Shown here: positions 47,392 to 64,000 of the stretch, in pieces
Layout of the letters: each line of letters opens with the position of its first letter
Numbering within the stretch: position 1 is the first letter of the stretch
Origin: a virus
Length of the DNA: 64,000 bases
Virus record (IMG/VR): IMGVR_UViG_3300035034_001213
Span: 1 to 64,000 of that record
Strand: one strand, 5' to 3'
Made by a program: the position numbers and the translations under genes
The notes under the pieces: model-generated
Database searches by the model: none
What the model was told of the DNA's origin: nothing
The model's input: only the letters and a program-made list of their open reading frames with translations

Positions 47392-47404
47392 TGGTGATCC
47401 AAAC

Positions 47405-49057: not shown

Positions 49058-49097
49058 CGGGTTACCTTAATAAAGACGTGGATTCATAAAATGGGAA

Positions 49098-49122
49098 TAA
49101 GAGGAGGCCCGAAGGCCTCCTC
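49098..49122 (-). terminator. Terminator ending the desaturase/radical SAM operon
   Basis: On the minus strand the stop codon of the last desaturase runs into GAGGAGGCC-TTCG-GGCCTCCTC, then TTATTCCC. On the plus strand the same hairpin is followed by TATTTTTT, so it may work in both directions. Confidence 0.75.
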
Positions 49123-49934
49123 TATTTTTTCGTCGCGGCTTTCAAAACATCGCTCAAATCGCAGGCGTCGTGGCCACGTCTAGGTTTCTTTATCAACCAA
49201 ATTACCCAAGCGGCTGGATCGATCTCCCACCATTTTATTTGCGTGTTCCAACGAGTTGGATACATGTGATGGTTGTTGTGCAGTCCATCGCCTAAAGTCA
49301 TTACGTGCATAAACCAACTGTTTCTACTTTCATCGGTTGTGTCGTAGTTACGGTACCCCCACTGATGTCCAGCAACATTGAACAGTCCTTTCAGATGAAA
49401 CATACACGCAGCCGGAATGCAGTATGCGTAAGCTGCGATCTTCCAATCAATCAAAGTCAGGACAAGGCTGAACATCAATAGAATAGGTACGTAGTATTTA
49501 TGCGTAAACTTGAAGAAGGGGTCTTTCAGTTCTTTCTTGATCAACCTGAGTTCAAGGTGCGGTACGTAATCGGTCCAGTCGCTGAACCACGACGTTAAAA
49601 CCCCTCGACCAACAGGACTGTGAGGGTCCTTCTCAGTGTCTGTGTGCTTATGATGCGATCGATGGACCAACGTGTTGGTCAACGGTGAGGCGATGGTGCA
49701 CAACATACCACAGAAGATTAGAAGATACCGAATAGGTGCGTAGGTCTCAAACGAGTTGTGGGCAAGCATGCGGTGGTAGCCTATCGTGACTCCTAAGAAT
49801 CCGTATGTTAAATAGGCGATCAACGAGACCTGAAGCCAAAACCACCAACCATTATACACTGCCGCAGAAATGAACGACAATGCTCCAATCTGCAACGCGA
49901 GCTGCAAGTACTTCAGTTGTCGAACTTCAGACAT
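49122..49934 (-). CDS. Membrane fatty-acid desaturase, array copy 5
   Basis: 270 residues with all iron ligands: HRMLAH, HRSHHKHTD with DPHSP, HNNHH, and GHQWGYRNYDT. Hydrophobic stretches fit four membrane helices. Reaction: introduction of a double bond into membrane or CoA/ACP-linked acyl chains. It is the last gene of the array and shares a 50-base identical run with the gene upstream, so the two are recent duplicates. The start has AGAAGACTAATG-type spacing after the preceding gene. Confidence 0.9.
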   Translation of the reverse strand: MSEVRQLKYLQLALQIGALSFISAAVYNGWWFWLQVSLIAYLTYGFLGVTIGYHRMLAHNSFETYAPIRYLLIFCGMLCTIASPLTNTLVHRSHHKHTDTEKDPHSPVGRGVLTSWFSDWTDYVPHLELRLIKKELKDPFFKFTHKYYVPILLMFSLVLTLIDWKIAAYAYCIPAACMFHLKGLFNVAGHQWGYRNYDTTDESRNSWFMHVMTLGDGLHNNHHMYPTRWNTQIKWWEIDPAAWVIWLIKKPRRGHDACDLSDVLKAATKK

Positions 49935-49946
49935 TAGTCTTCTCCA

Positions 49947-50705
49947 CTATGTCGGTTTTTTGATAAGCCAGATTATCCAAGCCGCTGGGTCTAGTTCCCA
50001 CCAGCGAATTTGAGTGTTCCAACGACCGGGGTATTTATGGTGGTTGTTGTGCCACCCGTCGCCGAACGACAATATGTGCATTGGCCAACAGTTGCGACTA
50101 TCCTCGTCAGTATCAAACGATCGATACCCCCAGGAGTGACCGAAGACGTTTGAAAACCCTTTGTAATGATAAAAGAACAAAGCCGGTACGCAGTACAAGT
50201 ACACAGCTACTTTCCAATCAACCAATGCCAGCATTACCACAAACAACAATAAGATTGTAGCGTAATGTTGATGCGTGAACTTAAAGAAGGGGTCTTTCAA
50301 CTCCTTTCTAGCGGTTCGAAGATCTAACTTCAAATCAATGCCCATCCAGTCTCCAAACCAAGTTCCTTTGTATCCCATTACGCTTGGACTGTGTGGGTCC
50401 CTAGCTCGGTCTGTGTGTTTGTGATGCGATCGGTGAACCAGTACGCCAGTCAACGGTGAGGATACCGAACACAGCATTCCACAGAAGATCAGCAGATACC
50501 GAATGGGAGCGTAGGTCTCAAACGAGTTGTGGGCAAGCATGCGGTGGTAGCCTATCGTCGTTCCAAGAACACCCACAACAAAATACACCAATAGTGCCCA
50601 ACCAAACCACGACCACATCTCTTGATAGATCCCATAAGGAATGGCCACAATCGCAATCGCGTGTGTGGCGATTTGAAAATATTTCAATTTGGTTGACGGT
50701 TGCAT
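49947..50705 (-). CDS. Membrane fatty-acid desaturase, array copy 4
   Basis: 252 residues. Boxes HRMLAH, HRSHHKHTD, HNNHH and GHSWGYRSFDT are intact. It is closely related to the copy at 49122 (identical at nucleotide level over 50509-50558 against 49739-49788). I placed the start at the ATG 50705 because GAGGTACTA precedes it and it overlaps the upstream stop as TAATG; a longer frame extends into the previous gene. Confidence 0.9.
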   Translation of the reverse strand: MQPSTKLKYFQIATHAIAIVAIPYGIYQEMWSWFGWALLVYFVVGVLGTTIGYHRMLAHNSFETYAPIRYLLIFCGMLCSVSSPLTGVLVHRSHHKHTDRARDPHSPSVMGYKGTWFGDWMGIDLKLDLRTARKELKDPFFKFTHQHYATILLLFVVMLALVDWKVAVYLYCVPALFFYHYKGFSNVFGHSWGYRSFDTDEDSRNCWPMHILSFGDGWHNNHHKYPGRWNTQIRWWELDPAAWIIWLIKKPT

Positions 50706-51463
50706 TAGTACCTCGGTTTCTTTATCAAACGGATAACGACGGTTGGAATATCGACTTCCCACCAACGATCCCAGTTGTTCCAGTCGTTAGGGCGTGCATG
50801 ATGATTGTTGTGAAATCCTTCACCGCCTAATAACCAAGACACTAGCAACGAGTTGACTGACGCATCGTCCGTATCGTAGTTTCGATAGCCCGACGTATGG
50901 ATCCACGCGTTTGCAAAACCAAAGAGGATTCTTAGTAATGCAATCGGTAGTGCATACGCAAACAAAAACAAACGCCAATCGATGACTAACAGCAACGCTA
51001 CCCAACTGTAGATGATCTTAAAGTACTGGCGGTGAAAGAACAACATGTCTGGATCTCGAGTCAGATCCCGTATCGAACGAGGCGAACACTTCGACGTATC
51101 CATACCGATCGAGAACCAGGCTCTGAAGAACCCCATTGTCTTAGGACTGTGTGGATCTCCAGGTTTATCTGGGTACATGTGATGGGTTCTGTGTACCATG
51201 GCCCAAGTGACTGGTGAACCAAGACACATCAATGTACCACAGAACAGTAGAAACCACCGAACCGGAGTGTACGTAACAAAGCTGCGGTGCGATACGTATC
51301 GATGAAAGCCAACCGCGTTACCAAAGACGCTGAGAGTCAAGTAAACTCCCAACGTCCACCACAGCCAATGCCATTGCTGACTGTGGATTAGGTAAGTAAC
51401 CGCGACTATTCCAAAGACCGCATTGAACATCGTCAGTATGTTCGACTTGCGAGCTTCAGTCAT
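50705..51463 (-). CDS. Membrane fatty-acid desaturase, array copy 3
   Basis: 252 residues. Boxes HRYVSH, HRTHHMYPD with DPHSP, and HNNHHARP are present. HRTHHMY lacks the last His of HxxHHxH, as in many acyl-CoA delta-9 desaturases, so it is probably active. The GHxWG motif has become IHTSGYRNYDT. The start is the ATG at 51463 after TAGGAGAACCTCT. Coupled by TAATG to the next gene. Confidence 0.9.
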   Translation of the reverse strand: MTEARKSNILTMFNAVFGIVAVTYLIHSQQWHWLWWTLGVYLTLSVFGNAVGFHRYVSHRSFVTYTPVRWFLLFCGTLMCLGSPVTWAMVHRTHHMYPDKPGDPHSPKTMGFFRAWFSIGMDTSKCSPRSIRDLTRDPDMLFFHRQYFKIIYSWVALLLVIDWRLFLFAYALPIALLRILFGFANAWIHTSGYRNYDTDDASVNSLLVSWLLGGEGFHNNHHARPNDWNNWDRWWEVDIPTVVIRLIKKPRY

Positions 51464-51473
51464 AGAGGTTCTC

Positions 51474-52271
51474 CTAGGCGGTTCTGTGTTTGGGCAAAGG
51501 ATGACCACGATGATGAATCAACTTAATGACCTGAGCCGGAATGTCCCATTCCCACCAACGTTCACGTGTATTCCACCGCGACGGATGCGCGTGATGATTG
51601 TTATGCCAACCTTCACCCATGGTCATGACGTTAGCGATCCAACTGTTCAAGCTGGTGTCGCCTTCCAACTGATGGTTACGATACCCATGAAGATGTGGGA
51701 TGACCACGATACCGCTGGCGCTGTGTAATGACAACACGGCCGGTAAAGCGTAGACGAAAGCTACCCCTTGCCAACCCAAGGTCAGGAACAGCAAGAGCGT
51801 CCAACCTGCCAACACATGGAAGTAGTAGTTATGCGTCCAGATGTATAAGGGATCCCGTCTCATCGTCTTCGAGACTCGACCAGCTTGTCGAAATCCTGAA
51901 GTATTCCAAGCACCGAACCATGCTTTCAATGGTCCTATGGCGTGTGGACTGTGCGGGTCGTGTTCACCATCCGTGTGAATGTGGTGGATGCGATGCACAA
52001 TGGACCAGGCCATCGGAGAACCCACGGTAGTGATGATGCCACAGAACATCAAAACGTATTCAACCGGTCGGTATGTCTTAAACGCCCCGTGCGCTAAGAA
52101 ACGATGAAACCCAACATTGATTCCTAGGATACCGATTACCCAATAGGTCAACCATGCGGTCAACAACCACATCCATTCACCCATGTAGATCGCCCAGCCC
52201 ACTGCAGGAATGGCAATTAGATGCGTGACTACTTGGAGCAGTCGTACACCGTTGTTGTGTGTCAATTTCAT
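51474..52271 (-). CDS. Membrane fatty-acid desaturase, array copy 2
   Basis: 265 residues. Boxes HRFLAH, HRIHHIHTD with DPHSP, and HNNHHAHP. The fourth conserved site reads IPHLHGYRNHQ. Its sequence is distinct from copies 3-5, so the array is not a simple recent expansion. GAGAGGGTAGTA precedes the ATG. Confidence 0.9.
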   Translation of the reverse strand: MKLTHNNGVRLLQVVTHLIAIPAVGWAIYMGEWMWLLTAWLTYWVIGILGINVGFHRFLAHGAFKTYRPVEYVLMFCGIITTVGSPMAWSIVHRIHHIHTDGEHDPHSPHAIGPLKAWFGAWNTSGFRQAGRVSKTMRRDPLYIWTHNYYFHVLAGWTLLLFLTLGWQGVAFVYALPAVLSLHSASGIVVIPHLHGYRNHQLEGDTSLNSWIANVMTMGEGWHNNHHAHPSRWNTRERWWEWDIPAQVIKLIHHRGHPLPKHRTA

Positions 52272-52273
52272 TA

Positions 52274-53035
52274 CTACCCTCTCTTCTTGATAAGTCGAAT
52301 AAACATTGCGGTAGGATCAAGTTCCCACCATCTATGTTGAAGATTCCATTGACTGGGAAACGTGTGATGGTTGTTGTGCCACCCTTCGCCAACCGATAAG
52401 ATGTTGCAAAGCCAGCTGTTCTTTGAATGATCGTTATCTGGGTAGTTTTGATACCCCCAAGAATGACTCATAATCGATAGACAGAAGCCTACTACGAACG
52501 AATGCAGCGCCGCTGGAACGATGTACACGGCCAGAAGCCACTCAGGCCCTCCGAACAATAACAGTCCAAGACCATAAAGCGCATTCAATAAAAAATAATG
52601 CGTGTGAACCCAAAACATGATCGGATCACGAACCACGTCTCTGACGGAAACCCGCCGGTCTTGCATGTCGACGTATTTCAAACACAGAAGCGCTTTCCAG
52701 AAACCCATGTGACGATGACAATGTGGGTCCTTAGGCGTCTCGGTATAACGATGATGAACTCGATGCATCCAGGCCCAACTGATGGGAGTTCCCATCGCCA
52801 AAGGCACACTCATCAACGCCATGATCAATTCAATGGGTCGGTACGTCTTGTAGCTTCGATGCGAAACGTATCGATGCATGTACGCGTTGAACCCAATGCA
52901 TTGTTGAACACAATAGACACCGAGGGTTACCCAGAGCAACTCAGGGAAGGCCACCGCCAAGTAGATAACACTTGGAATAAACGCTAACCATAACCCGTTT
53001 CTAAAGACGTTCAATCGTTGTACGCTATACTCCAT
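52274..53035 (-). CDS. Membrane fatty-acid desaturase, array copy 1
   Basis: 253 residues. Boxes HRYVSH, HRVHHRYTE with DPHCH, HNNHHTFP, and SHSWGYQNYPD. HRVHHRY is the delta-9-type second box. It is the first desaturase downstream of the ketoacyl synthase gene and overlaps it by 11 bases, tying the array to fatty-acid synthesis. TAGGAGTCACCAG precedes the ATG. Confidence 0.9.
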   Translation of the reverse strand: MEYSVQRLNVFRNGLWLAFIPSVIYLAVAFPELLWVTLGVYCVQQCIGFNAYMHRYVSHRSYKTYRPIELIMALMSVPLAMGTPISWAWMHRVHHRYTETPKDPHCHRHMGFWKALLCLKYVDMQDRRVSVRDVVRDPIMFWVHTHYFLLNALYGLGLLLFGGPEWLLAVYIVPAALHSFVVGFCLSIMSHSWGYQNYPDNDHSKNSWLCNILSVGEGWHNNHHTFPSQWNLQHRWWELDPTAMFIRLIKKRG

Positions 53036-54221
53036 ATCTGGTGACTCCTAAAACACTGTTCAATCCACCAAAGCCAAATGCGTTCTTGATAAACGAATTG
53101 ACTGGACCAGTAACTTGGTGTTTGGGAAGGTTAATCGGTTTTATGTCGGGGTCAGCTTCGAATTTACCGTTTGAGATGATAAACTCATACTTCATTTGAT
53201 ACAAGCTGTAGATCAACTCAATAATGCCAGACGCCGTGAGGGTGTGACCAATCAAACGTTTAAACGCAACGACTGGAATCTCATTGCCAATCACGTTTGA
53301 GATTGCTTCTGCTTCAACGACATCGCCATTAGGGGTTGAGGTCGCGTGTGCTGAGATGAAATCCGGACGGTGTCCCAACATAGCCATCTTACCTAAAACC
53401 TCAGACATGGACGCTGAGGCCCCCTCACCGGAAGGGTTCGTCATGTCTTCGCCGTCTGAATAATCAGCGTAGGCTATAGGCTGACCATACGCTTTAGTAC
53501 CACCACGTTGACGGAAGTATTCTTCCGATTCGAGAATAACACACCCGCCACCTTCACCATGTGTAAACCCACCACGATGTTTGACAAACGGCACACTGGC
53601 GTACGCTAGGTCGTCGCCTCGATAGAGTGCTCTCATGGCATCAAAGCCACGCATACCCTCATCGATGTATTTTTCAGTACTTACACAAATAACCACATCT
53701 GCACGACCAAGTTCGATCAGATCCATACCTTGGGTCACCGCGCGTAGTCCTGTAGCACACGCGTGTTGCACTGTGTGCGTTGGGCCTTTCAACTTAAGAA
53801 CGGTAGAGAGAGGTCCAGTTACAACCGTCGGAAGAGTCTTCATGAGATCAAACGGTTTGACCCGTGGGAAGTCCTTCTGAACAATACTACGCATGGAAGG
53901 CATGTCGCCAGCACCGCTGCCTGAGCACAAGGCTACTCGTCGAGTATTTATGTCGTCTAAACACAACCCCGCGTCCGCTAATGCGTCTAGTACTACTGCG
54001 TAGGAGATGTTTAAATGATCCATTTGATAACTACGAGGAATCCCGGGCGCCAGTAACCGTGAGTCGTCAATGCATTTGGAAACACTGCTCGCCTTGTTCC
54101 TGGGATCGTTACTTTCGTACCGTTGGATCGAAACTGTCTCTTGTTTCAGATTGCCAACAATTTCTCCCTCCCAACGTCCAATTGAGGTAATACACCCCAC
54201 ACCCGTTATTACACAACTCAT
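53025..54221 (-). CDS. Beta-ketoacyl-ACP synthase (KAS I/II, FabB/FabF type)
   Basis: 398 residues, normal for the thiolase-fold condensing enzymes. The full active site is present: Cys155 in QHACATGLRAV, His292 in SAHATSTPNGD, and Lys321/His326 in FKRLIGHTLTASG; the terminal AFGFGGLNSVLG loop is also intact. It should condense acyl-thioesters with malonyl-ACP, extending host fatty acids by two carbons. Diverged N-terminal half. It sits between the oxygenase/radical SAM genes and five desaturases. AGGACATCGGT precedes the ATG. Confidence 0.9.
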   Translation of the reverse strand: MSCVITGVGCITSIGRWEGEIVGNLKQETVSIQRYESNDPRNKASSVSKCIDDSRLLAPGIPRSYQMDHLNISYAVVLDALADAGLCLDDINTRRVALCSGSGAGDMPSMRSIVQKDFPRVKPFDLMKTLPTVVTGPLSTVLKLKGPTHTVQHACATGLRAVTQGMDLIELGRADVVICVSTEKYIDEGMRGFDAMRALYRGDDLAYASVPFVKHRGGFTHGEGGGCVILESEEYFRQRGGTKAYGQPIAYADYSDGEDMTNPSGEGASASMSEVLGKMAMLGHRPDFISAHATSTPNGDVVEAEAISNVIGNEIPVVAFKRLIGHTLTASGIIELIYSLYQMKYEFIISNGKFEADPDIKPINLPKHQVTGPVNSFIKNAFGFGGLNSVLGVTRYGV

Positions 54222-54278
54222 ACCGATGTCCTATCTCAAGATGAGGTGTCTCCGATGAAACACCCATCGATTGGTTTA

Positions 54279-54806
54279 CTAGATGTACTCGATCTCGATA
54301 GCCCCGACCTGCGCGCCATTGGACCCAGCATTGATCGTAACCGGTGTACCGCTTAGGGTAATGATTTCAACACCCACAACCGGCTGGCCATCGATATCGA
54401 TATCACCCTCGGCTACAGAGAGAAATCCCAATATCGACAGAGTCGTAGATTCGTTGGGACCGAGGATTAGGCGATGCGGTGCCAGCTGTCGATGGTTGGT
54501 GTTAAACGTATCTAGACAATACCCAACGGTTCCGTCTTCCTGAATGGTCATTCGACTCCAATGTGCATTGTGGGTTGTTTGGAAAGGGGTCGATGAGGTG
54601 ATCAAGTCTTCTCTGAACGTGTTTGTCTTTAAAATACTACCAGAGACTATGAACCGACAGTCGTTCGTGGGGACGTAGTCATCAGCTTCCACTTCTACGT
54701 GAGTCGGCTGTTCACCGAAAATAATAGATTCCCCAGTGTCGCCAATAAAGAAAGCAACCGCCACATCACCATCTGGCAGTTTTAAACGATTTAGACGCGT
54801 TCTCAT
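54279..54806 (-). CDS. Beta-rich hypothetical protein in the biosynthetic operon (175 aa)
   Basis: Strand-rich protein with many Thr/Asp/Gly and a C-terminal Ig-like or jelly-roll-like pattern (ILGFLSVAEGDIDIDGQPVV, then GVEIITLSGTPVTINAGSNG). No catalytic residues stand out. It could be a virion or binding protein, or a target of the enzymes encoded beside it. Ribosome site not obvious (ATGAAGGGGTTATAATG-type context gives AAGGGG). Confidence 0.6.
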   Translation of the reverse strand: MRTRLNRLKLPDGDVAVAFFIGDTGESIIFGEQPTHVEVEADDYVPTNDCRFIVSGSILKTNTFREDLITSSTPFQTTHNAHWSRMTIQEDGTVGYCLDTFNTNHRQLAPHRLILGPNESTTLSILGFLSVAEGDIDIDGQPVVGVEIITLSGTPVTINAGSNGAQVGAIEIEYI

Positions 54807-54816
54807 TATAACCCCT

Positions 54817-55371
54817 TCATTCTTTTAAATAAACATCAATAGGTATCGCAAGTCTAAGTCCAGGCTCGTGATTCTCAACGCTGTGCTGTAAGTACGATGG
54901 AAAGATAACCAGACCGCCGTGTTCGGTTTTGTATTTGTACGGCTGAAAGTGATTGTTGATCACATCCGTTGGGTATCCTCGAGACGCCAGTCCTCTTGGG
55001 TCAAACAAAGTTAAATACCCTTCCCTTGCCTCCAAGTAATAAATTGCAGAAACGTGGGCACCGCTGTGGTGGTGGATTGGTGTCCCGCACCCGTCGCTGC
55101 TGTTTCTTACCCAGCCAGTCCAGCTGTCTAGTAAAGGTTCGTAATTAAACTGATCCCAGGCGTACTGCATGATCTTGGGGATCAAGGTCTCCTCTACAAA
55201 CTCTTTCAGGTTCGGGTACTGTCTTAGATGCAAACTTCTGGTGTCGTCGATTGGAAGTCCGTCGGTACTCCTCGGTTGCATCATCGCTTCGTAAATCAAC
55301 GTTTCGTGCTGTTTAGAGACGACCGAATCTTCACGTATCGCGACAGTCCATGGATGAACGTCAATTGTCAT
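54817..55371 (-). CDS. 2OG-Fe(II) oxygenase-like protein, copy 2
   Basis: 184 residues resembling the phage/cyanobacterial putative 2OG-Fe(II) oxygenase family (PF13759-like). PIHHHSGAHVSAIYYLEARE supplies the first His pair, LTLFDPRG the next strand, and GGLVIFPSYLQHSVENHEPG then LRLAIPIDVYL the second His and the 2OG-binding Arg. Expected chemistry: O2- and 2-oxoglutarate-dependent hydroxylation or related oxidation. Similar throughout to the gene at 55381, so the pair arose by duplication. Confidence 0.65.
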   Translation of the reverse strand: MTIDVHPWTVAIREDSVVSKQHETLIYEAMMQPRSTDGLPIDDTRSLHLRQYPNLKEFVEETLIPKIMQYAWDQFNYEPLLDSWTGWVRNSSDGCGTPIHHHSGAHVSAIYYLEAREGYLTLFDPRGLASRGYPTDVINNHFQPYKYKTEHGGLVIFPSYLQHSVENHEPGLRLAIPIDVYLKE

Positions 55372-55380
55372 GGAATATCC

Positions 55381-55947
55381 TTACTTAGGTTTACTCAAGT
55401 ACAAATCGACTGGAATAGAAATTCTCATCTTTTTATCATGTCCGTCAACGTAGTGTTGAAGATACGACGGGAATACAAGAAGCAATCCTTCTTTTGGATC
55501 TTCGCTGAACAAATTAAAAAATTCATTCCGAACCACCGTCGGGTATCCTCGGCACGCAGACCCTCGGGGGTCGACCAGATTGAGTGCGCCGCCATTGGTA
55601 GTTAATGGATAGTAGATCGCTGACAGAACGGCCCCACTGTGTTCGTGAAGTTTCATACCTTCGCCACCGGTCGTTACTCGGACCCAAGCGTTGTATGTGT
55701 ACTCCACGGCTTCTAATTCCCAGTGCTCGTAAAGATACGACAGCAGCGCTGGGAGAACTCGATCTTCAAGCATCCGATGGATCTGTGGAAACGTCTTTAA
55801 TGAAACGGTGTTGTCATCCAGATCCAGATCGTCGAAGTTTCGGTTTGTAGACCGTATCAGCGCTTCGGTTATCAATTCGTCGTTGTCTACGTTTTCGAGT
55901 ATCTCCCGACGGACCACTGTCCGCCATGGTTCTATATCTTGAAACAT
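55381..55947 (-). CDS. 2OG-Fe(II) oxygenase-like protein, copy 1
   Basis: 188 residues. MKLHEHSGAVLSAIYYPLTT, LNLVDPRGSACRGYPTVV and LLLVFPSYLQHYVDGHDKKM then RISIPVDLYL match the copy at 54817 and carry the same His...His...Arg pattern. Both end in DVYLKE/DLYLSK. I chose the ATG at 55947 with GGAGGCCGC upstream; a longer frame overlaps the previous gene. Substrate unknown. Confidence 0.65.
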   Translation of the reverse strand: MFQDIEPWRTVVRREILENVDNDELITEALIRSTNRNFDDLDLDDNTVSLKTFPQIHRMLEDRVLPALLSYLYEHWELEAVEYTYNAWVRVTTGGEGMKLHEHSGAVLSAIYYPLTTNGGALNLVDPRGSACRGYPTVVRNEFFNLFSEDPKEGLLLVFPSYLQHYVDGHDKKMRISIPVDLYLSKPK

Positions 55948-56357
55948 GCGGCCTCCGCCATACACTCGTCTTTGAAATATTGGACCGTGAAATCCACCCA
56001 CCGACCTTTTAGGGGAATGTTCTCAATGCCCCCTAAGGCCTCCAATATGATGTCGTACGATTCCTTGTCTTGGGTGTAGGGTACAAAGTATTCATCAGTT
56101 CCGTATAAAAGCATGGGGTCGTTTAAGACCTCATAGAACGGTTCGTTGAAGTGTTCCCAAAGTAACCGAGAATAAATCAAAGCAACCGCGTATGACTTTC
56201 CTGGATAAACCGATTCTTCCCGAGGGTCTAACAAATACTCCAAAGCCGGACCTACGACGTCTTCTCGATCAATGATCGTCTCAAAGTTTTCGACAGCGTC
56301 GGTGTGGACTTGGGTCATAAGGTGATATAGCTTCTGATTGGCTTTCCATTCTTTCAT
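55932..56357 (-). CDS. Hypothetical protein between oxygenase and radical SAM genes (141 aa)
   Basis: Helical, acidic, aromatic-rich protein with no recognised family. It overlaps the radical SAM gene upstream by four bases (ATGA) and the oxygenase gene downstream by 16, so it is translationally coupled to both. A small partner protein, such as a substrate-recognition element, would fit; nothing in the sequence proves it. Confidence 0.6.
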   Translation of the reverse strand: MKEWKANQKLYHLMTQVHTDAVENFETIIDREDVVGPALEYLLDPREESVYPGKSYAVALIYSRLLWEHFNEPFYEVLNDPMLLYGTDEYFVPYTQDKESYDIILEALGGIENIPLKGRWVDFTVQYFKDECMAEAACFKI

Positions 56358-57442
56358 GAAGCACGCCGCTCCCAGTTAAACTCTTCACGCATCTCCCTTG
56401 CGGTTGAAATACAGTGTTCGGAGTCGGTAATGGTCATCACTTTCTGGACTCCCCGCTCAGCGCACTTGGCAATGAACTCACACCCGTCACAGATGCCGTT
56501 GGTTTGCGCCAACGACAGACACTCGATCATACCGTCCTCTTCTTGACGAAAGATGTTCTCGAAGGTCCAGGGACCGTCCACTCGATGCTCCGGTTCAAAG
56601 GAGGAGAAGGCTTCCACAATGAACGGAGGCACAAACATCTCACCGTTGCGGTACACCACGTCCCAGTCTTCCCCTTCGTTCATCTGCAACTCAACGATTT
56701 CGAAATGTTCCTGACGCTCGTTCGCAGCCATCCGTGACTGGATAAGCAACCGGTTTAGGTGTTCAAGACTGGACAGGAAATTTTCTTGATTGACGGGATC
56801 TCTGAGGCTCTCTCGACCGTGAGGAAGAATGAAATCGCTGTGCGACGTCGGATGGAGATTGACGTGGTACGCTCGAGTAAGGATGTCCTTAGTCAGAGTG
56901 AAGCCGCGTTTATGATCGTTGGCGATCGACTCCTCAAAGTTAACGACGCTGTAGACTCGAGTGATCTTAACGGTACTTAAGCAGCTTTCGAAATACGCCA
57001 CCCTGTTACGAATGCCTTCGATGTACGCTGGGTTGTCAATGTGACGCACCTCAAACGGCACCGTAAACTTCAGAAGACCGTTAGGAATCAACGCTTCGAC
57101 TTGTTCCGCCAACTTTTCATAGACCTCAGGTTTCGGATCTAGGAACGCACAGTTCAAGGTGGTCTTGAGAAACCGCTGAGCAATCTGCTTGATCCTCGGG
57201 TGTTCCAAGATCAAGTTTTTGTTCTCGGAGCTGAGGATGTCTGTGGGACCCAAGATAAAGTTGAGGACCTCCAACTCAGCGGTTTCAAAGGTATCGATCA
57301 TTCGATCAATGCGATCAAACTCTTCAAGGGTTGGGAATCGATTGTCTTCTTTCTCAACCATACATCCCGAACAATTGTGTCGACAGCCACTTGCGATTTC
57401 CATAGTGAAGTCGATTAACTTATTAACTTGTGACTTGTGCAT
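56354..57442 (-). CDS. Radical SAM enzyme, non-GGEP pair member A
   Basis: 362 residues. The [4Fe-4S]-SAM motif is CRHNCSGC (Cys20, 24, 27). Instead of the usual G-G-E motif it has ILGPTDILS, also seen as APVDIMS in the next gene. The C-terminal region has CDGCEFIAKCAERGVQKVM and a last EHC, a SPASM/twitch-like cluster site. I chose the ATG at 57442 with GGTGA upstream. It is a clear paralogue of 57447, with matched LNCAFLDPKP and VPFEVRHIDNP blocks. Probably modifies a peptide or protein. Confidence 0.85.
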   Translation of the reverse strand: MHKSQVNKLIDFTMEIASGCRHNCSGCMVEKEDNRFPTLEEFDRIDRMIDTFETAELEVLNFILGPTDILSSENKNLILEHPRIKQIAQRFLKTTLNCAFLDPKPEVYEKLAEQVEALIPNGLLKFTVPFEVRHIDNPAYIEGIRNRVAYFESCLSTVKITRVYSVVNFEESIANDHKRGFTLTKDILTRAYHVNLHPTSHSDFILPHGRESLRDPVNQENFLSSLEHLNRLLIQSRMAANERQEHFEIVELQMNEGEDWDVVYRNGEMFVPPFIVEAFSSFEPEHRVDGPWTFENIFRQEEDGMIECLSLAQTNGICDGCEFIAKCAERGVQKVMTITDSEHCISTAREMREEFNWERRAS

Positions 57443-57446
57443 AATT

Positions 57447-58502
57447 TCACCAACTGCATTTATAGCTGAGTTTACCGAGCACCGACAAACACTCATGCGT
57501 TCCTAATAACCTCTGTACTCGATGTACCCCTCGAGTTGCGCACTTGCTGACAAACCGACACCGAGAACATTCGTTAGATTCACCAGCACGGGTGATGGAT
57601 TCGAAAAAGGTCTCTTGATCGGCCTGTTGGATCTTGTCAAGTGTCCAGGGTTTCTTGAATTTGAAGTCGTCGTGAAAAATGGTGATCGGACTGTTAATAA
57701 GGGGGGCTATATACAGGTCGCCATTGCGATACGCCAGATGATAATCGCACCCAACGTGCTCACCCAGATCGTCGATCTTAAACTCGTACCCTTTGTCCAC
57801 CTGATTGGCAAACATTTCGTTTTGCTTCAAGATGGTTCTTAAGAACTCTTCTCGGTCTTCGTTAACCGACAGGTCACGGCGGCCGTAATGAAACACAAAC
57901 GTGGTGGTGTCTGACTTTTCAAACAACTCGATGTGTCGGGTCTTATGGAGCGTCTCTTCACTGACAACGCCTTTGTCCATCAGCGACTCGGTCATATTCA
58001 CGATCGCGGTAACACTCCCGATCCCCACCGACTTCAGATTTTCATTCAACCAGTTGATGCGACCCCGGAGCTTTTCAACGTACCCCAAGTTGTCGTGATG
58101 CTTTAATTCGAAGGGTACCAGAAACTCCGCGTTCAACCCTGGCATAAACGCCTCGAGCTCTTCAGCAAACTGAACGTACGCGTCCGGATCGGGGTTCAAG
58201 AAGGAGCAGTTGAACACCACCGACTTAAACCCTTTTAACATCTTTCGAACCGCAGGGTGAGTTAATACGTCTTGTCGATTGCTGGCGGACATGATGTCTA
58301 CCGGTGCAAACTCCATCCAAGACATCTCCCATCCACGACTGCGTACGTCGTCAATAATCTCACTGAGCGCTGCGAGATCGGCTTCTGTGTATGGGGTAAT
58401 GTCTTTGGTGTTAACGCTGCACCCAGAACACCCGTAGTCACAGTCTTTTAACAACTCCAGCGCTAGATTGCCGATGTTGTCCCCTCGAACCATGGTTGTC
58501 AT
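57447..58502 (-). CDS. Radical SAM enzyme, non-GGEP pair member B
   Basis: 351 residues. CDYGCSGC (Cys21, 25, 28) is the SAM-cluster motif, with FAPVDIMS in the GGE position. FNCSFLNPDP and VPFELKHHDNLGYVEKLRGR align with member A. The C terminus has CSRCRFVSKCATRGVHRVQR and HEC, a cysteine pattern for at least one auxiliary cluster. Overlaps the neighbouring radical SAM gene by four bases. Confidence 0.85.
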   Translation of the reverse strand: MTTMVRGDNIGNLALELLKDCDYGCSGCSVNTKDITPYTEADLAALSEIIDDVRSRGWEMSWMEFAPVDIMSASNRQDVLTHPAVRKMLKGFKSVVFNCSFLNPDPDAYVQFAEELEAFMPGLNAEFLVPFELKHHDNLGYVEKLRGRINWLNENLKSVGIGSVTAIVNMTESLMDKGVVSEETLHKTRHIELFEKSDTTTFVFHYGRRDLSVNEDREEFLRTILKQNEMFANQVDKGYEFKIDDLGEHVGCDYHLAYRNGDLYIAPLINSPITIFHDDFKFKKPWTLDKIQQADQETFFESITRAGESNECSRCRFVSKCATRGVHRVQRLLGTHECLSVLGKLSYKCSW

Positions 58503-59443
58503 TGCGATTCAGCCCATTTTAACAAATGTAGAAACCCGTTGCACGAGTGCGTCGTATCGGTGACTTTACGAAGATGTTCAGACAAACACTTACCGGCGTA
58601 GTCACATTCCGAACACTTGGAATCAAGTACCTTGAGCTTCTCTCCTGCACACCAACCAAAGTATTCCTCGATACTGTCCAACTCCAAAAAGTATTCGTTG
58701 TCTTGTTCATCAAAGTCCAAGACGCCGAACTTCCCAGTTGGGGTGATGTAGACGTGGTCGTCGGAGAACGAATGTCCCCGACCTTCCAAACAATCTTGTA
58801 TGTTCAACGCGTTCACAAAATCAAACTTCATCTTATCTTGGCGCTTGTACAACACCTTGATAAACGCCTCGTAGTCGTGATAACTCACCGGCAGTTGATT
58901 GGCTTGATTAGGACTGTACGGCTTGATCTCTACCGACGTGAGATTTGACAACAGGTTTAACGTGTTGATGATCTCATCTGGGTCTTTCGCCATTACTTCG
59001 GGAGTAGCCAACATCAAAATCGAAAAGTCGCGTTCCATTTTTAACATCTGCTGAAAGACGTGGTCGTGCTTTTCTCGAGCCTCAAAGTCGTAGCTCACTG
59101 AGATGCCCCAGCTCACGTCGTGGACCGCAGGATTGTTCATGGATAGATTGGTGATGATGTTAAGATCGTCAATCCCACGATCGTGTAACCCGTCCTTCAG
59201 TGCGCCGATGTATTCCGGTGGCAACAACAAAGGTTCGCCACCGTACAGATCCACCATCTCTACCTTCCGGTGAATCATTACCTCATCGATCCGATCAAAC
59301 AACCGATGCAACGTCAAGCGCTTCTTGTCGCCGAGTTGTTCTGACGTGAGATAACAAAACCCACATCGGAAATTACAGAAGTACGAAGGATTAATGCTAA
59401 GATTAATCGGAATCTCAGGTAACGTCAAAGAGTTTGAGTTCAT
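58499..59443 (-). CDS. Radical SAM enzyme with SPASM-like C terminus
   Basis: 314 residues. CNFRCGFC (Cys23, 27, 30) and DLYGGEPLLL are the canonical radical SAM motifs. A C-terminal CSECDYAGKCLSEH, with nearby WCAGE and HSCNGF, is a short SPASM/twitch-type cluster site. Such enzymes commonly modify ribosomal peptides or proteins. I chose the ATG at 59443, with GAGAGT upstream, over the one at 59455. Confidence 0.85.
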   Translation of the reverse strand: MNSNSLTLPEIPINLSINPSYFCNFRCGFCYLTSEQLGDKKRLTLHRLFDRIDEVMIHRKVEMVDLYGGEPLLLPPEYIGALKDGLHDRGIDDLNIITNLSMNNPAVHDVSWGISVSYDFEAREKHDHVFQQMLKMERDFSILMLATPEVMAKDPDEIINTLNLLSNLTSVEIKPYSPNQANQLPVSYHDYEAFIKVLYKRQDKMKFDFVNALNIQDCLEGRGHSFSDDHVYITPTGKFGVLDFDEQDNEYFLELDSIEEYFGWCAGEKLKVLDSKCSECDYAGKCLSEHLRKVTDTTHSCNGFLHLLKWAESQ

Positions 59444-60506
59444 CGTTACTCTCATCTACGTAGGGGGTGGGAATCAATTGCCCAGTCAATCCATTGGCCT
59501 CGATGATCTCTGGGGCAAGAGCTTTCATCTTACGACAGTGCTCTTCAACACGACCTGTCTTTTTAGCGTCGCGTATGCTCTTCTTACACCCATTGCATAT
59601 AGAGAACATTGGACAGAAGAAACAGTCTTTCTTCAGACTTTGCAGTTCATAGACTTGAAGCGGCAGTTTCATCTCCCCTTCCATCTCCTCGTTAAAGTCG
59701 ATGGGGTATTCTCGATCGTCCCCAAACGACCCACAAGAATAATAGCCACCATTGGGTTGCATGGTGCGAATACCAGAGTCGCAGTTACGAGACAAAGGAC
59801 AAGCGTCAGAACCTTTGGCTAAAACTTGAAGCATCTGCTTAGTGCTGTACTCCCAGGGTGCCAGACCTTCCCGCCACACCGCCAAATACGCTTTGTACAT
59901 ATCGGCGACTAAGAAATGTTGATCTTCACTGCCCATGGTGCCTTTACGGGTTTGTATTACCGGACCCGAAGCGTTGGTGTAGTTGATCTTACATTCCACA
60001 TCCATCGCTTTGGCTAAACGTACTGTCTTCACCACATCGTCGACGTTCGTTTCATCGATTACTGAGATGAACGATGGGCGATACCCCACCAGCTCCAACA
60101 TGAGGTCTGAGACGGCCCAGAACTCCTCTTCGGTGAAAGGGGTATAATCACCCTTCAAACGCTTGTTACCGTACTGGAAGCTCGTAGCAACGCCCACACG
60201 AGGGTGTTTGAACAACTCCAGCCACATCTGAGGTTTCTTGTAGAACGGCCAGAGGTTGGTCGTCAGTGAAATGGACGTGTGGGGCATATCCAACTCATCC
60301 AGAATCTCAATCATTTCCCAGTAGTACGACACGGGCATCATAAGGGGATCGCCGCCGTTGATGATGATCGTATCGGTTTGTGGGAATCGTTGAAGAAACC
60401 GTTTGATGTCCGGAAGCTCAACGATGTCGTTGCTGTCCTCAGCGATGTCGGTGCTTGAGCAGAAGGTGCACTTAAAGTTACACTTCTCAGTTGGCTTAAT
60501 TATCAA
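59415..60506 (-). CDS. Radical SAM enzyme with full SPASM domain
   Basis: 363 residues. CNFKCTFC (Cys9, 13, 16) and IIINGGDPLM give the core. The C-terminal half has CPLSRNCDSG, GGYYSCGSFGDD, and CFFCPMFSICNGCKKSI...EEHC, the spacing of a SPASM domain with two auxiliary clusters, as in peptide-modifying maturases. The only conventional start in frame is TTG at 60506; GGAGGG lies 13 bases further up, so the true start may be different. The motif begins unusually close to the N terminus. Confidence 0.85.
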   Translation of the reverse strand: MIIKPTEKCNFKCTFCSSTDIAEDSNDIVELPDIKRFLQRFPQTDTIIINGGDPLMMPVSYYWEMIEILDELDMPHTSISLTTNLWPFYKKPQMWLELFKHPRVGVATSFQYGNKRLKGDYTPFTEEEFWAVSDLMLELVGYRPSFISVIDETNVDDVVKTVRLAKAMDVECKINYTNASGPVIQTRKGTMGSEDQHFLVADMYKAYLAVWREGLAPWEYSTKQMLQVLAKGSDACPLSRNCDSGIRTMQPNGGYYSCGSFGDDREYPIDFNEEMEGEMKLPLQVYELQSLKKDCFFCPMFSICNGCKKSIRDAKKTGRVEEHCRKMKALAPEIIEANGLTGQLIPTPYVDESNDELKLFDVT

Positions 60507-60543
60507 ATCGATTTTACTACCCTCCTAGCCGTTAAGGGCTCGT

Positions 60544-61602
60544 TTAAACATTCATGGCAGGAATGCGTTTATCCGGTCCTTCGACGACCGAGTCAATGTA
60601 CCGATGCGTGACTTTGTAGACACACTCATCCATCTCTTCCCGGAACCGGTAATTGTGTTGCATGAAACAACCCAACTCACAACGCTGGAAATACTCACAG
60701 GTCAAGCACCCATATTTCTCCATGAAGTGCTCTTCAATCGCCGAGTTGTCGGTTTTGTCCAACGGCACCTCGTAAATCTCTTCCGCCACCTTGGGATCGA
60801 TCAGATTACCGCAGCCGCACGTGGTCCCGTCTTCTAAGACCAGTTTACTCGACCGACACGACAGTGCCGAAGGCTGACGTCTTAACCACCCGGCGACCGG
60901 CTCACAGTTCGGGTAGTGGTCAATCAAAAACTTGAACATGCGTAACAAGTCATGATCGCTTGGGGCTGCGTTGGTTTTCTCATCCGGCATGAGGTAATCG
61001 AAGTACAACTTAAACCCTTGATCGTACGCCCAACTAAAGAACTCGTCTTGGTCTTTGACGAAGTGTTCGATGTTTTGCTTGGTCATCAAAAGACTGACGC
61101 TTCGAACCACGCGCGGTCCATAGTAAGCCAGGTTCTTCTTGAAGATCTCTAACTGCGCTCGATTGAATCTTCCTTTTGGATCGTAGGACACCGTCACTGT
61201 GGTGCTTCCGCCCAAGGTTCTTGCTCTTTCTAAGAAGTCGTCCAGTAGCGGGCGGTCCTCCGTGACCAGATTTGTCACCCAGTTCAACGTCACCGCTATG
61301 TTCTTCGCCCGACATTGATCGATAATCGCTTCACTGAACCGAACGTAGGTGTCGGCCAATTCGGGGGTAAAGACCTCTGGTGCAAAGACCTCACCCCCCA
61401 TAATGTTAAACACCACTTTGCGTTTGGTTTCTTTTTGCAGAAGCGCTTCAACAGAAGAGAGCTTGCCCATGACATCATCGACCCCCACTAAGGAGTCGTG
61501 ATCCTGCCAACAGAAACTGCATGACAGGTTACAGTAGGTGAACAGATGTAACGTGTACTCCTGCTCTTCATCGCGCTTGTTCTGTAAAAAGACGTCCATC
61601 AT
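60544..61602 (-). CDS. Radical SAM enzyme with SPASM-like C terminus
   Basis: 352 residues. CNLSCSFCWQD (Cys24, 28, 31) and FNIMGGEVFAPE are the core motifs. The end carries SCRSSKLVLEDGTTCGCGNL and CLTCEYFQRCELGCFMQ, fitting a SPASM-type auxiliary cluster. The start overlaps the upstream stop as ATGA. It is the first radical SAM gene of the operon, directly after two unknown proteins and the Cys/His-tailed protein. Confidence 0.85.
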   Translation of the reverse strand: MMDVFLQNKRDEEQEYTLHLFTYCNLSCSFCWQDHDSLVGVDDVMGKLSSVEALLQKETKRKVVFNIMGGEVFAPEVFTPELADTYVRFSEAIIDQCRAKNIAVTLNWVTNLVTEDRPLLDDFLERARTLGGSTTVTVSYDPKGRFNRAQLEIFKKNLAYYGPRVVRSVSLLMTKQNIEHFVKDQDEFFSWAYDQGFKLYFDYLMPDEKTNAAPSDHDLLRMFKFLIDHYPNCEPVAGWLRRQPSALSCRSSKLVLEDGTTCGCGNLIDPKVAEEIYEVPLDKTDNSAIEEHFMEKYGCLTCEYFQRCELGCFMQHNYRFREEMDECVYKVTHRYIDSVVEGPDKRIPAMNV

Positions 61603-62612
61603 AATTCAAAGCCTTTACAGTCCTCCGCTGTCAACGTCACGGCCCAATGGATCACGTGGACTTTGAGTTTGTCCATGTCGGCCCAGTCGAGGTAGTCCGT
61701 GTGTTCGGTGCTTGTGCGGAGCATGGAAATGAATTGAGTCACCACTTCGTCATCGCTCAAAGGCGCTAACGTGTCGATGATCTTCAACTTGGCGCGTTCG
61801 CCTGCGATTTGCGTTTTCTCGATCTGAACTTCCTGATCCAGATACACCGCCATGTCTCGCAGCACCGCCTCTTGAGCCGGTTCTTTTAAACGAGTGATGC
61901 GAAGACTCAGGTTCGGGTCGTTCAAAAAATTGAGTCTGGGTATCTTACGCAGTATGTCGAAATCACCCAGGTACTTAGCAGCGGTGTATCCGTACTTCTT
62001 CTGCATGTTCTCAGAAAAGAACAGAGACACCAGGTTCCGCTGTATCTCATCGATGTGATTGTGCATCGATCGTAACGCAAATACTCGAATCGGATCGGCT
62101 AAGTTCGCACGTTTGTTCCCAGACAAATGGTCCAAGAGTTTGTATTCCAACGACACTCGTTCTGGCATGTCTCGAACCAAAGCCCTCAGTTCTGGATCTT
62201 GCTCCACGATTGAGAGACCAACCAACGTTTCTTTCAGCACGTCGGTCTTTGGCAGCGGTACGCCTTGAGTGCTGAGTGACAGAAACTCCAGATTCAGTAG
62301 CTGAAGCAATTGTTCTGAACTGGCGTTTGGAAACAACGCTTTGAGCCACTTAGCCACTAATTGCCCGTAGGACTCGACACTGGTGTAGATAACTACCTTC
62401 TTGTCACCCAGTCCTTTGTACTTAGCAATCAGATCGGAGAAACCGCTTTTAACGAATTTCTCTTCGTCAGGCTCCACCCCCATGACAAAGGGACCAGAGA
62501 TTAAAGTTTCATCAAAATTCTCACCTAAGGCCTTTGAAGCCAGGAAGAACGTGTTCTGCTCGTCTTTGAGTACGTCCACACCTAGGTAGATGCGATTAAA
62601 CAAATGATACAT
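61599..62612 (-). CDS. Hypothetical protein, radical SAM partner (337 aa)
   Basis: Large, helical, charged protein with no recognised domain. It begins MYHLFNRIYLGVDVLKDEQN and has a strand-helix start like a ligand-binding domain. Genes coupled by four-base overlaps on both sides (TGATG upstream, ATGA downstream) suggest it acts with the radical SAM enzymes, perhaps in substrate presentation. AAGGAAACGTG precedes the ATG. Confidence 0.6.
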   Translation of the reverse strand: MYHLFNRIYLGVDVLKDEQNTFFLASKALGENFDETLISGPFVMGVEPDEEKFVKSGFSDLIAKYKGLGDKKVVIYTSVESYGQLVAKWLKALFPNASSEQLLQLLNLEFLSLSTQGVPLPKTDVLKETLVGLSIVEQDPELRALVRDMPERVSLEYKLLDHLSGNKRANLADPIRVFALRSMHNHIDEIQRNLVSLFFSENMQKKYGYTAAKYLGDFDILRKIPRLNFLNDPNLSLRITRLKEPAQEAVLRDMAVYLDQEVQIEKTQIAGERAKLKIIDTLAPLSDDEVVTQFISMLRTSTEHTDYLDWADMDKLKVHVIHWAVTLTAEDCKGFEL

Positions 62613-63337
62613 CACGTTTCCTTAAGCGACTCTTGCTGTTTTTGTAAGACTGCAACCGCCGACTGAAATTCATCGTCGGATATCATGTGGCCGTCGGCCA
62701 GTGCCGTCGTTAACACGTGCACGTCGTTCTCAGGAATTGACCAGTATGCGAACAGGTTCTTACCTTTGAACATGTAGTCGTTGAAGTACTTGGTGTAGTT
62801 CTTGACCAAGTTCTCACTGATTACGTTCATTGTCAATGGAAACAATGGGTTGTCGAACAAATGTACGAAGTTGATGCCTTTTGTATCAGCGGTTTCATCT
62901 AGGGGGAAGTGCTCCACCACCGATGAGATTGTTTCATCGTTGATCGTGGTCATCATGTACAGACTCATGGAGTCGATCAACGACAACCATTTACCAAGGA
63001 TCTCGGTGTGGTCTTTGATCCACTTATCCGTAATCCAATTGCATTCAGCAATGCCTTTGATGTGCAAGATGACCTCAAGCACCATGGTCTCAAGGGTTGG
63101 GCATTTCAGCAACGTTGGTAGTGTGAGGTAGGCTTCAAGTACGTCCCACGCTTCGTCGCCATTGAACGTGACGTCCACTGGGAGTTCCAAGTTACTTAGA
63201 TACACCAACGCTTGATACGGACTGACCCTTTCTCGGGAAGCGCTAAGATCAACCAAAAGCGAGACTTCTTTATCGCCAATGATTTCTCTGAGAGTTTCAA
63301 CCGGAATAGGCACGGTGGTTTCTATTACTCTACTCAT
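62612..63337 (-). CDS. Hypothetical protein, radical SAM partner (241 aa)
   Basis: Helical protein of unknown family. It starts as TAATG on the stop of the Cys/His-tailed gene and overlaps the next gene, so translation of all three is coupled. AGAGGTCGGCGATA precedes the ATG. The close coupling to both a candidate substrate and the enzyme genes makes it a candidate carrier or recognition protein. Confidence 0.6.
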   Translation of the reverse strand: MSRVIETTVPIPVETLREIIGDKEVSLLVDLSASRERVSPYQALVYLSNLELPVDVTFNGDEAWDVLEAYLTLPTLLKCPTLETMVLEVILHIKGIAECNWITDKWIKDHTEILGKWLSLIDSMSLYMMTTINDETISSVVEHFPLDETADTKGINFVHLFDNPLFPLTMNVISENLVKNYTKYFNDYMFKGKNLFAYWSIPENDVHVLTTALADGHMISDDEFQSAVAVLQKQQESLKET

Positions 63338-63888
63338 TATCGCCGACCTCTTGAGTTATGGCACCGAGAGTGACATCGAGTGTGACAGACATCTCGAGTT
63401 AATAACGTAGCCCCTCCCCGAGCGAATGCTAAATAGTTGTTTCTTAGAGACTCGATGAAGTCATACGTATCCGATTGATCAACGTCGTTTCCGGCGATAA
63501 CGGTGGTTATATCCGGAAATCCAGTGTCGGCAGCGTATTGAGGGGCCAAATGAGCCACCGCTGTGACGTTGTAAATCAATCTTTTGCTGTTGTTGTAATA
63601 CCCAGATCGGGTTCGATAAATAGTGATCTGCGTGTTACGAACATTGAAATACCCTTGTGCAACCCCGATCAAACTGCTCCTACATCTCAATGCGTCCAAT
63701 TCCCCATCGGTGCCTCGTATTGAAGCATATGAAGGCATCGTGTAATCGCCACCAGTGCTTCCACCAAACCATCCCAGAAGGGAACCGGAAGGGTAATTGT
63801 TGGTGCCCCACGAAATACCACTTCTTTGCAGCTCTCTTACCCGGGTTAGAAACCGGTTGTAGACGTCGTATACCCTAATGTCAGCCAT
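63337..63888 (-). CDS. Cys/His-tailed protein, candidate radical SAM substrate (183 aa)
   Basis: Residues 1-160 are an ordinary Tyr/Gly/Asn-rich domain that looks like a virion or fibre protein (YASIRGTDGELDALRCRSSL, FNVRNTQITIYRTRSGYYNN). The last 16 residues, 168-183, are CHTRCHSRCHNSRGRR: three Cys-His pairs at exact four-residue spacing followed by a basic end. This may be a modified core peptide or a metal-binding tail. It heads the radical SAM operon, with TATATAGGAAGCTTGAC before the ATG. Residue 69 or so holds another Cys. Confidence 0.75.
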   Translation of the reverse strand: MADIRVYDVYNRFLTRVRELQRSGISWGTNNYPSGSLLGWFGGSTGGDYTMPSYASIRGTDGELDALRCRSSLIGVAQGYFNVRNTQITIYRTRSGYYNNSKRLIYNVTAVAHLAPQYAADTGFPDITTVIAGNDVDQSDTYDFIESLRNNYLAFARGGATLLTRDVCHTRCHSRCHNSRGRR

Positions 63889-63934: not shown

Positions 63935-64000
63935 CTATCCCACGTTCAAAGCAGGGATGATCTCTGTCTCTCCGTACTTAAAATGAGAGAGTAACATTCT
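63935..64000 (-). CDS. Partial 3' end of an upstream gene
   Basis: Only 21 codons lie in the window; the frame reads RMLLSHFKYGETEIIPALNV and ends GVG-less at a TAG (63935-63937). The composition is protein-like. The rest lies beyond the right edge; it may belong to the same operon. Confidence 0.45.
   Translation of the reverse strand, partial: RMLLSHFKYGETEIIPALNVG

What the first reader, a model, noticed from the sequence alone, without database searches (positions are those of the whole stretch)
53025..63888. Phage operon of five radical SAM enzymes, two oxygenases and a condensing enzyme
Five separate CxxxCxxC radical SAM proteins lie in a row, three with GGE motifs and SPASM-like tails, plus two 2OG-oxygenase-like proteins and a beta-ketoacyl synthase, joined by overlaps of 1-41 bases or short gaps. 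I know of no phage gene set like this. The order (Cys/His-tailed protein, two unknowns, maturases, oxygenases) is what one expects of a peptide or protein modification pathway.
Basis: partly seen in the sequence, partly recalled or inferred. Interest (0 to 1): 0.92.

Follow-up and report, generated by a model that had tools for sequence, protein, structure and literature searches.

The report
Radical-enzyme cassette maturing phage fibre tips
Hundreds of uncultivated phages, a few jumbo phages and some predatory bacteria carry the same set of radical enzymes next to a fibre-associated protein whose end always reads Cys-His-x-x, Cys-His-x-x, Cys-His-x-x-Arg-x-Arg-Arg, so they probably chemically remodel the tip they use to touch prey cells, something not described before.

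Summary
Five radical SAM (rSAM) proteins, two 2OG oxygenases and an intact FabF-like synthase lie in a row on the minus strand; a sixth rSAM (63935-64996) and a cupin follow just past the window end. The real unit is cupin / rSAM-A / X / D / E / rSAM-B, C, D, E, F / J / 2OG. X (63337-63888) ends CHTRCHSRCHNSRGRR-stop. In reverse, 73 of 76 loci fetched by rSAM-A alone, and 80 of 80 fetched by protein D alone, encode the same tail. X bodies are divergent, with no PDB match. In one phage the tail is fused to an S74 fibre self-cleavage domain; in Atu_ph07, X (gp170) marks the edge of the mass-spectrometry-defined virion cluster; cassettes sit beside tail-fibre genes, and in some Bdellovibrionota beside S74 fibre-like proteins. 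Best reading: the enzymes post-translationally rebuild the Cys/His tail of a fibre-tip protein. The chemistry is unknown. The synthase and the desaturases are a separate, lineage-specific module. I found no report of this substrate or tail.

The parts
63935..64000 (-). rSAM-A: radical SAM/SPASM protein, 353 aa; the full ORF is 63935-64996 of the 73,033-bp record (continues past the window); a cupin (64984-65466) lies just upstream
   Evidence: PF04055 over cut-off and TIGR04085 30.8 bits; CX3CX2C, HGGEPF and SPASM Cys invariant in 11 homologues; cupin upstream in 77/79 loci fetched by rSAM-A
63337..63888 (-). X: proposed substrate; folded body plus C-terminal tail CHTRCHSRCHNSRGRR-stop
   Evidence: tail invariant in 141 distinct X proteins; AF2 body pLDDT mostly 90-98, tail about 53; no PDB fold match; S74 fusion in L158
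62612..63337 (-). D: conserved unknown protein (phrog_20767), 241 aa, encoded directly after X
   Evidence: D downstream in 72/76 rSAM-A loci; 80/80 D loci carry the X tail and an rSAM
61599..62615 (-). E: fast-evolving unknown protein, 338 aa
   Evidence: no Pfam, NCBIfam or PHROG family; homologue in the same place in other cassettes
60544..61602 (-). rSAM-B, 352 aa, CNLSCSFC, MGGEVF
59415..60506 (-). rSAM-C, 363 aa, CNFKCTFC, NGGDPL
   Evidence: PF04055 41 bits
58499..59455 (-). rSAM-D, 318 aa, CNFRCGFC, YGGEPL
   Evidence: PF04055 39.4 bits; 43-50% identity to 5 isolate phages
57447..58502 (-). rSAM-E, 351 aa, CDYGCSGC, no GGE
   Evidence: phrog_31457 6e-15
56354..57496 (-). rSAM-F, 380 aa, CRHNCSGC, no GGE
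   Evidence: PF04055 22 bits, below cut-off, phrog_31457
55932..56357 (-). J: conserved unknown protein (phrog_20737), 141 aa
   Evidence: 1.7e-38; found in the same 5 isolate phages as rSAM-A
55381..56001 (-). 2OG-Fe(II) oxygenase (PF13759, phrog_81)
54817..55371 (-). 2OG-Fe(II) oxygenase (PF13759, phrog_81)
54279..54806 (-). unknown 175-aa protein at the end of the cassette; membership uncertain
   Evidence: no family hit
53025..54221 (-). FabF-like beta-ketoacyl synthase; adjacent lipid module, not part of the conserved cassette
   Evidence: only in closest relatives G293, G294
49122..53035 (-). five tandem membrane fatty-acid desaturases (49122-49934, 49947-50765, 50705-51508, 51474-52271, 52274-53035), His boxes intact; adjacent lipid module
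   Evidence: PF00487 for 49122-49934; His boxes of all; relatives
44971..47328 (-). tail fibre with repeats and C-terminal S74 chaperone/autoprotease, flanking the region
   Evidence: PF22337, PF13884, phrog tail fibre

Best explanation
The cassette is a virion-protein maturation system. X is a small fibre-tip or baseplate-tip protein: a folded body (confident model) that ends in a flexible, invariant Cys-His tail (seen in sequence and model). The rSAM enzymes, which look like peptide-modifying SPASM maturases, with the cupin and the 2OG oxygenases, convert that tail into a cross-linked and/or hydroxylated tip (inferred). D, E and J probably help recognise or present X (inferred). X is then built into the tail-fibre apparatus so that the modified tail is exposed at the end that meets the cell, perhaps as a metal-binding or redox-stable adhesive tip (inferred). 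The exact chemistry is unknown; thioether (Cys to carbon) or Cys-His cross-links are the likeliest guesses. The synthase and the desaturases are a separate lipid module.
For: Tail: 142 ORFs in 119 IMG/VR stretches end CHxxCHxxCHxxRxRR; permuted control 0. Positions not in the search pattern are also fixed: Ser/Ala at -5 in 137/141, Gly at -3 in 127/141, Ser at -13 in 127/141. All synonymous Cys, His and Arg codons are used, so the constraint is on protein. Linkage: rSAM in 113/119 tail loci; exact tail in 73/76 rSAM-A loci; tail + rSAM in 80/80 D loci; X begins a median 42 nt after rSAM-A. Enzymes: CX3CX2C and C-terminal Cys motif nearly invariant in all rSAM families; nearest solved structures include anSME, CteB and ChlB (the name CteB for 5wgg/5why is from memory). 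Fibre: L158 X is fused to S74 (PF13884 1.5e-11) so that self-cleavage would leave the CH tail C-terminal, and L333 ends naturally at nearly that point. Tail-fibre or baseplate genes flank the cassettes. Atu_ph07 X is gp170, the first member of the virion-protein cluster CDS 170-215 set by ESI-MS/MS (PMC6102473). Bdellovibrionota cassettes adjoin S74 fibre-like proteins.
Against: No modified X has been measured. Table S5 of the Atu_ph07 paper could not be opened, so virion detection of gp170 is inferred from the cluster limits. Bacterial variants have altered tails (CHGNFPPPCHGSRGRR, CHSNHCSHSNHGSRGRR), so the Cys-His spacing is not absolute. Atu_ph07 and Phosso lack obvious 2OG oxygenases and rSAM-E, so those are accessory. 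A marine X type occurs as tandem pairs with mostly rSAM-E paralogues nearby. No RiPP recognition element was identified.
Confidence: 0.75

Rival explanations
1. The CH tail is a precursor core: rSAM and oxygenases modify it, it is cut from the X body, and a free RiPP-like peptide is released against the host or competing phages.
For: Folded leader-like body with an invariant C-terminal Cys-rich segment and SPASM maturases resembles RiPP logic.
Against: No protease or exporter recurs in the annotated cassettes; location beside tail fibres; S74 fusion in L158; X at the edge of the virion cluster of Atu_ph07.
Confidence: 0.1
2. The tail is an unmodified metal-binding (Zn, Fe or Cu) C-terminus of a fibre tip, and the rSAM enzymes act on something else such as fibre proteins or surface glycans.
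For: Cys-His pairs are good metal ligands; metal-bearing tail-spike tips are known (general knowledge).
Against: rSAM and the X tail co-occur almost without exception in two searches that did not use the tail; only D and the cupin are as tightly linked.
Confidence: 0.12
3. The rSAM genes are auxiliary metabolic genes (Fe-S or cofactor metabolism) carried in a host-recognition island.
For: This is how marine phage papers have read them (PMC5332604); rSAM cassettes were noted in the host recognition cluster of pelagimyophages (PMC7029224).
Against: No NCBIfam metabolic equivalog is met, all scores far below cut-offs; strict linkage to one structural-type protein with an invariant tail.
Confidence: 0.05
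4. In this lineage the synthase and six desaturases make an unusual acyl group that is attached to X or a fibre, so the whole 49-65 kb block is one pathway.
For: Contiguous genes, and the pair synthase + desaturases stays next to the cassette in relatives G293 and G294.
Against: Absent from most phages with the cassette (14 of 17 jumbo records have no desaturase); fabF and desaturase genes occur in freshwater pelagimyophages reported to lack radical SAM genes (PMC7029224).
Confidence: 0.1

Closest known systems
His-Xaa-Ser (Hxs) system, HxsA/B/C/D (TIGR03976-03979)
   Same: Target with a short repeated His-containing C-terminus and a pair of rSAM enzymes; rSAM-A and rSAM-C hit HxsB (38 bits) and HxsC (31 bits) weakly.
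   Different: Far below cut-offs (370, 268); no HxsA or HxsD family hit for X, D, E or J; repeat is CHxS, not HxS; 4-8 rSAM, cupin and 2OG enzymes; phage fibre context.
SPASM-type RiPP maturases (ranthipeptide PapB, CteB; dynobactin DynA; sactipeptide enzymes)
   Same: rSAM core plus C-terminal auxiliary-cluster Cys; Cys-rich C-terminal target encoded next to the enzyme.
   Different: No maturase equivalog cut-off met; target is a 120-365 aa folded protein, not a small leader peptide; no protease, exporter or RRE identified.
Anaerobic sulfatase-maturating enzyme (anSME)
   Same: Among the closest solved structures to rSAM-A; modifies a residue of a protein rather than a free peptide.
   Different: No sulfatase in the annotated cassettes; score 47 bits against cut-off 349.
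S74 (endosialidase chaperone) tail fibres and Bdellovibrio MAT fibres (PMC10769870)
   Same: Trimeric self-cleaving fibre tips; S74 proteins encoded beside the cassette in phages and Bdellovibrionota, and one X fused to S74.
   Different: The MAT paper mentions no rSAM enzymes or modified tips.
rSAM clusters of Campylobacter phage CP220 group
   Same: Several rSAM genes in a row in a phage.
   Different: Only 26-30% identity over 22-31% of rSAM-A; no CHxxCH protein in the 24-kb region; amidinotransferase and sugar-transferase partners instead.

Membership tests
Radical SAM superfamily | CX3CX2C cluster motif in a PF04055-type core | tested here: met
   Motif in all six; PF04055 over cut-off for A, C, D
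SPASM/twitch subfamily | C-terminal auxiliary Fe-S cluster cysteines (TIGR04085) | tested here: met
   A over cut-off (30.8 vs 27), C and B below (19.2, 14.4); CxxCx(4-7)C..C in 86/86 A, 67/68 B, 44/44 C, 34/35 D, 87/89 E
RiPP pathway | Genetically encoded substrate next to maturase with conserved core | tested here: met
RiPP pathway | Cleaved leader with protease/exporter | tested here: not met
   None in annotated isolate cassettes or listed neighbourhoods
RiPP pathway | RiPP recognition element (RRE) | tested here: inconclusive
   No PqqD-like Pfam/NCBIfam hit in D, E, J; a dedicated RRE search was not possible
Hxs system | HxsA HxS-repeat target, HxsD, and HxsB/HxsC above cut-off | tested here: not met
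S74 fibre proteins | C-terminal PF13884 domain | tested here: not met
   Window X lacks it; one homologue (L158) has it
Virion structural protein | Detected in purified virions | tested here: inconclusive
Modified protein | Mass shift or cross-link on the tail | not testable with these tools
   needs mass spectrometry

The most novel reading that the evidence does not exclude
A new kind of viral machinery: phages (and, by an ancient split, predatory bacteria) use four or more radical SAM enzymes to build a chemically unprecedented Cys/His-derived tip, exposed at the end of a trimeric fibre, which is needed for contact with or entry into the prey cell.
Probability: 0.4. Interest if true: 0.97.

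Novelty: new variant of a known kind. Interest (0 to 1): 0.92.

Why it matters
Phage tail tips are thought to be plain protein, sometimes with a metal ion. A conserved multi-enzyme radical pathway aimed at a fibre-associated tail would mean that many phages chemically remodel the part that touches the host. It would give a function to rSAM genes repeatedly listed in marine and jumbo phages without a role (PMC5332604, PMC7029224, PMC8066314, PMC11898562), provide a new family of peptide-modifying enzymes with an obvious substrate, and link phage adsorption to the fibre-like proteins of predatory Bdellovibrionota. One intact-mass measurement can test it.

Tried and rejected
Rejected: that the synthase belongs to the pathway; that the CP220 rSAM cluster is a relative; Hxs membership; that the tail is a DNA-level signal; that the tail is a chance or composition effect (control); viperin (33 bits against a cut-off of 180). 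Chance motif matches in L133, L134 and L140 were discarded because no ORF of at least 50 aa ending in the tail exists there; L139 is only a fragment. The exceptions to the reciprocal test were examined: L158 is the S74 fusion, L181 has a two-repeat tail, L179 has rSAM-C, a cupin and rSAM-D after rSAM-A but no X within 5 kb.
Full report
WHAT WAS CHECKED. The window is bases 1-64000 of a 73,033-base IMG/VR virus record. Five rSAM ORFs (B to F) carry CX3CX2C and a C-terminal CxxCx5-6C...C motif; GGE is in B and D, GGD in C, neither in E or F. Beyond the window end lie a sixth rSAM with a full SPASM domain (A, 63935-64996) and a cupin (64984-65466). The two 2OG oxygenases (PF13759) and the FabF-like synthase are real. 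Five membrane desaturases with intact His boxes follow (49122-53035), and a sixth lies at 41090-41854.

SAME CASSETTE ELSEWHERE. tblastn with protein D, protein J, rSAM-A and rSAM-D each finds, with good coverage, the same seven records among 50,697: Pseudomonas phage DT01, Burkholderia phages FLC6, FLC8 and SURPRISE13, Agrobacterium phage Atu_ph07 (two records), Sinorhizobium phage Phosso; that is six phages in four groups. rSAM-A also finds weak partial matches in Campylobacter phages. The regions are largely collinear: cupin, rSAM-A, X, then D and E, rSAM-B, C, D and J, with rSAM-E/F and 2OG enzymes present in some.

THE TAIL OF X. In these phages the protein right after rSAM-A has a divergent body but almost the same end: CHTRCHSRCHNSRGRR (window), CHTSCHTSCHSARGRR (DT01), CHSSCHTSCHGSRGRR (SURPRISE13), CHSSCHASCHNSRSRR (Atu_ph07), CHTSCHASCHSSRSRR (Phosso). 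I estimate about 0.01 expected by chance, and a pattern of the same composition with His and Cys swapped gave 0. Positions outside the pattern are conserved too (Ser -13, Ser -9, Ser/Ala -5, Gly -3). Synonymous codons are freely used, so selection acts on the protein. Bodies fall into about ten groups that BLAST does not join. A shorter pattern, CHxSCHx[SN]C, matched 356 stretches without reaching a limit.

LINKAGE TESTED BOTH WAYS. From the tail: 113 of 119 loci contain an rSAM homologue; the six others are mostly short or truncated stretches. From rSAM-A alone: 80 loci, 76 with enough downstream sequence, 73 with the exact tail; of the rest, L158 is an S74 fusion, L181 has a two-repeat tail, L179 has none nearby. 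From D alone: 80 of 80 have the tail and an rSAM. The cupin is upstream in 77 of 79, D downstream in 72 of 76, and X starts a median 42 nt after the rSAM-A match. These sets share contigs, so the numbers are not fully independent.

WHAT X IS. AlphaFold2 with 59 homologues gives a confident body (most blocks pLDDT 89-98, pTM 0.81) and a flexible tail (about 53). There is no PDB match (best E 0.83). BFVD matches include the X of Atu_ph07 and three larger proteins of Myoviridae sp. ctijX18. Three lines point to a fibre or baseplate tip. (1) In L158 the tail (four CH units) runs straight into an S74 self-cleaving chaperone domain (PF13884 1.5e-11, SDERLK motif); such domains sit at the C-terminus of trimeric fibres and cut themselves off, which would leave the CH tail terminal. 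L333 ends naturally near that point. (2) Tail-fibre or baseplate genes flank the cassette. (3) Counting features, X of Atu_ph07 is gp170; gp18, gp125 and gp132 match the numbering of PMC6102473, which defines virion-protein clusters by mass spectrometry as CDS 31-76, 170-215 and 284-329.

PREDATORY BACTERIA. A GTDB scan found the tail pattern in 19 stretches: several are phage contigs in bins, at least three are chance matches, and a group belongs to Bdellovibrionota. rSAM-A homologues at E under 1e-30 occur in 16 of 291 genomes of that phylum, one on a 4.15-Mb contig. There the tails vary (CHGNFPPPCHGSRGRR, CHTNVPTPPPCHASRGRR, CHSNHCSHSNHGSRGRR, or canonical), and neighbours include a prepilin-like protein with an S74 domain. 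Bdellovibrio is known to use S74 MAT fibres to recognise prey (PMC10769870), but no rSAM role is mentioned. In an rSAM-A tree, phage and bacterial sequences are essentially separate; the exceptions are L148, a short MAG contig, and a very long-branched row. This points to an old split.

MECHANISM. Shown: conserved genes, invariant tail, linkage, SPASM-type enzymes, fibre context. Inferred: the enzymes act on the tail; the product sits at the fibre tip; D, E and J assist. SPASM enzymes near rSAM-A (anSME, CteB) modify peptides or proteins, so cross-links or oxidation of Cys, His or Ser are expected, with hydroxylation by the cupin and 2OG enzymes. Which bonds form is unknown.

SYNTHASE AND DESATURASES. 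Among 17 large virus records with the cassette, a synthase is found only in G293 and G294, the closest relatives, and desaturases only in these and G300. They are a neighbouring lipid module; fabF and desaturase genes are known in freshwater pelagimyophages reported to lack rSAM genes (PMC7029224).

LITERATURE. Papers list these enzymes as accessory proteins without a role: PMC8066314, PMC11898562, PMC5468394, a T4-like marine genome with 12 rSAM genes (PMC5332604), rSAM cassettes in the pelagimyophage host recognition cluster. No paper found names X, its tail or a substrate. The library holds open-licence papers only, so prior work in subscription journals or preprints could be missed.

VERDICT. 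A real, widespread and overlooked system. It works like an rSAM/SPASM maturation pathway but meets no known maturase family cut-off and has a new substrate, so I file it as a new variant of a known kind; if the product proves to be an exposed chemical tip, it would deserve a category of its own.

Noticed in passing
window 41090-53035: Six membrane fatty-acid desaturases with intact His boxes (five in tandem) plus a FabF-like synthase: an unusual phage lipid module, shared only with close relatives (and partly G300).
   Followed up: partly
window 44214-44927: 237-aa protein made almost wholly of Thr/Ser/Arg-rich repeats (RTTSRSTS), beside an S74 tail fibre; no family hit. Could be a heavily modified fibre segment.
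   Followed up: no
window 41882-43956: Two genes (41882-42805, 42982-43956) that look like glycosyltransferases from sequence; the second matches phrog_26179 (unknown function), the first nothing.
   Followed up: partly
L008 18001-19178: Two dihydrofolate reductase genes inserted inside the rSAM cassette of Burkholderia phage SURPRISE13.
   Followed up: no
L011, L042, L051, L073, L075: Phages with X as a tandem pair (about 125-140 aa, QLRTFD motif in most), each with the CH tail, and several rSAM-E paralogues in a row.
   Followed up: partly
L040: Divergent cassette on a 231-kb contig: four-repeat tail CHSNCHSNCHSNCHTNRSRR with at least six rSAM genes.
   Followed up: no
L250-L255: Bdellovibrionota: S74-containing prepilin-like protein and a conserved KVWNxVWNDxADxQ protein of unknown function near the rSAM cassette; small MNRR-start proteins recur beside it.
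   Followed up: partly
L266 (Campylobacter phage CP220): A different multi-rSAM phage cluster with an amidinotransferase and sugar-transferase-like proteins, no CH-tail protein.
   Followed up: partly
window 48182-49057: Protein with PKD-like and DUF285 matches, probably another fibre or adhesin part.
   Followed up: no
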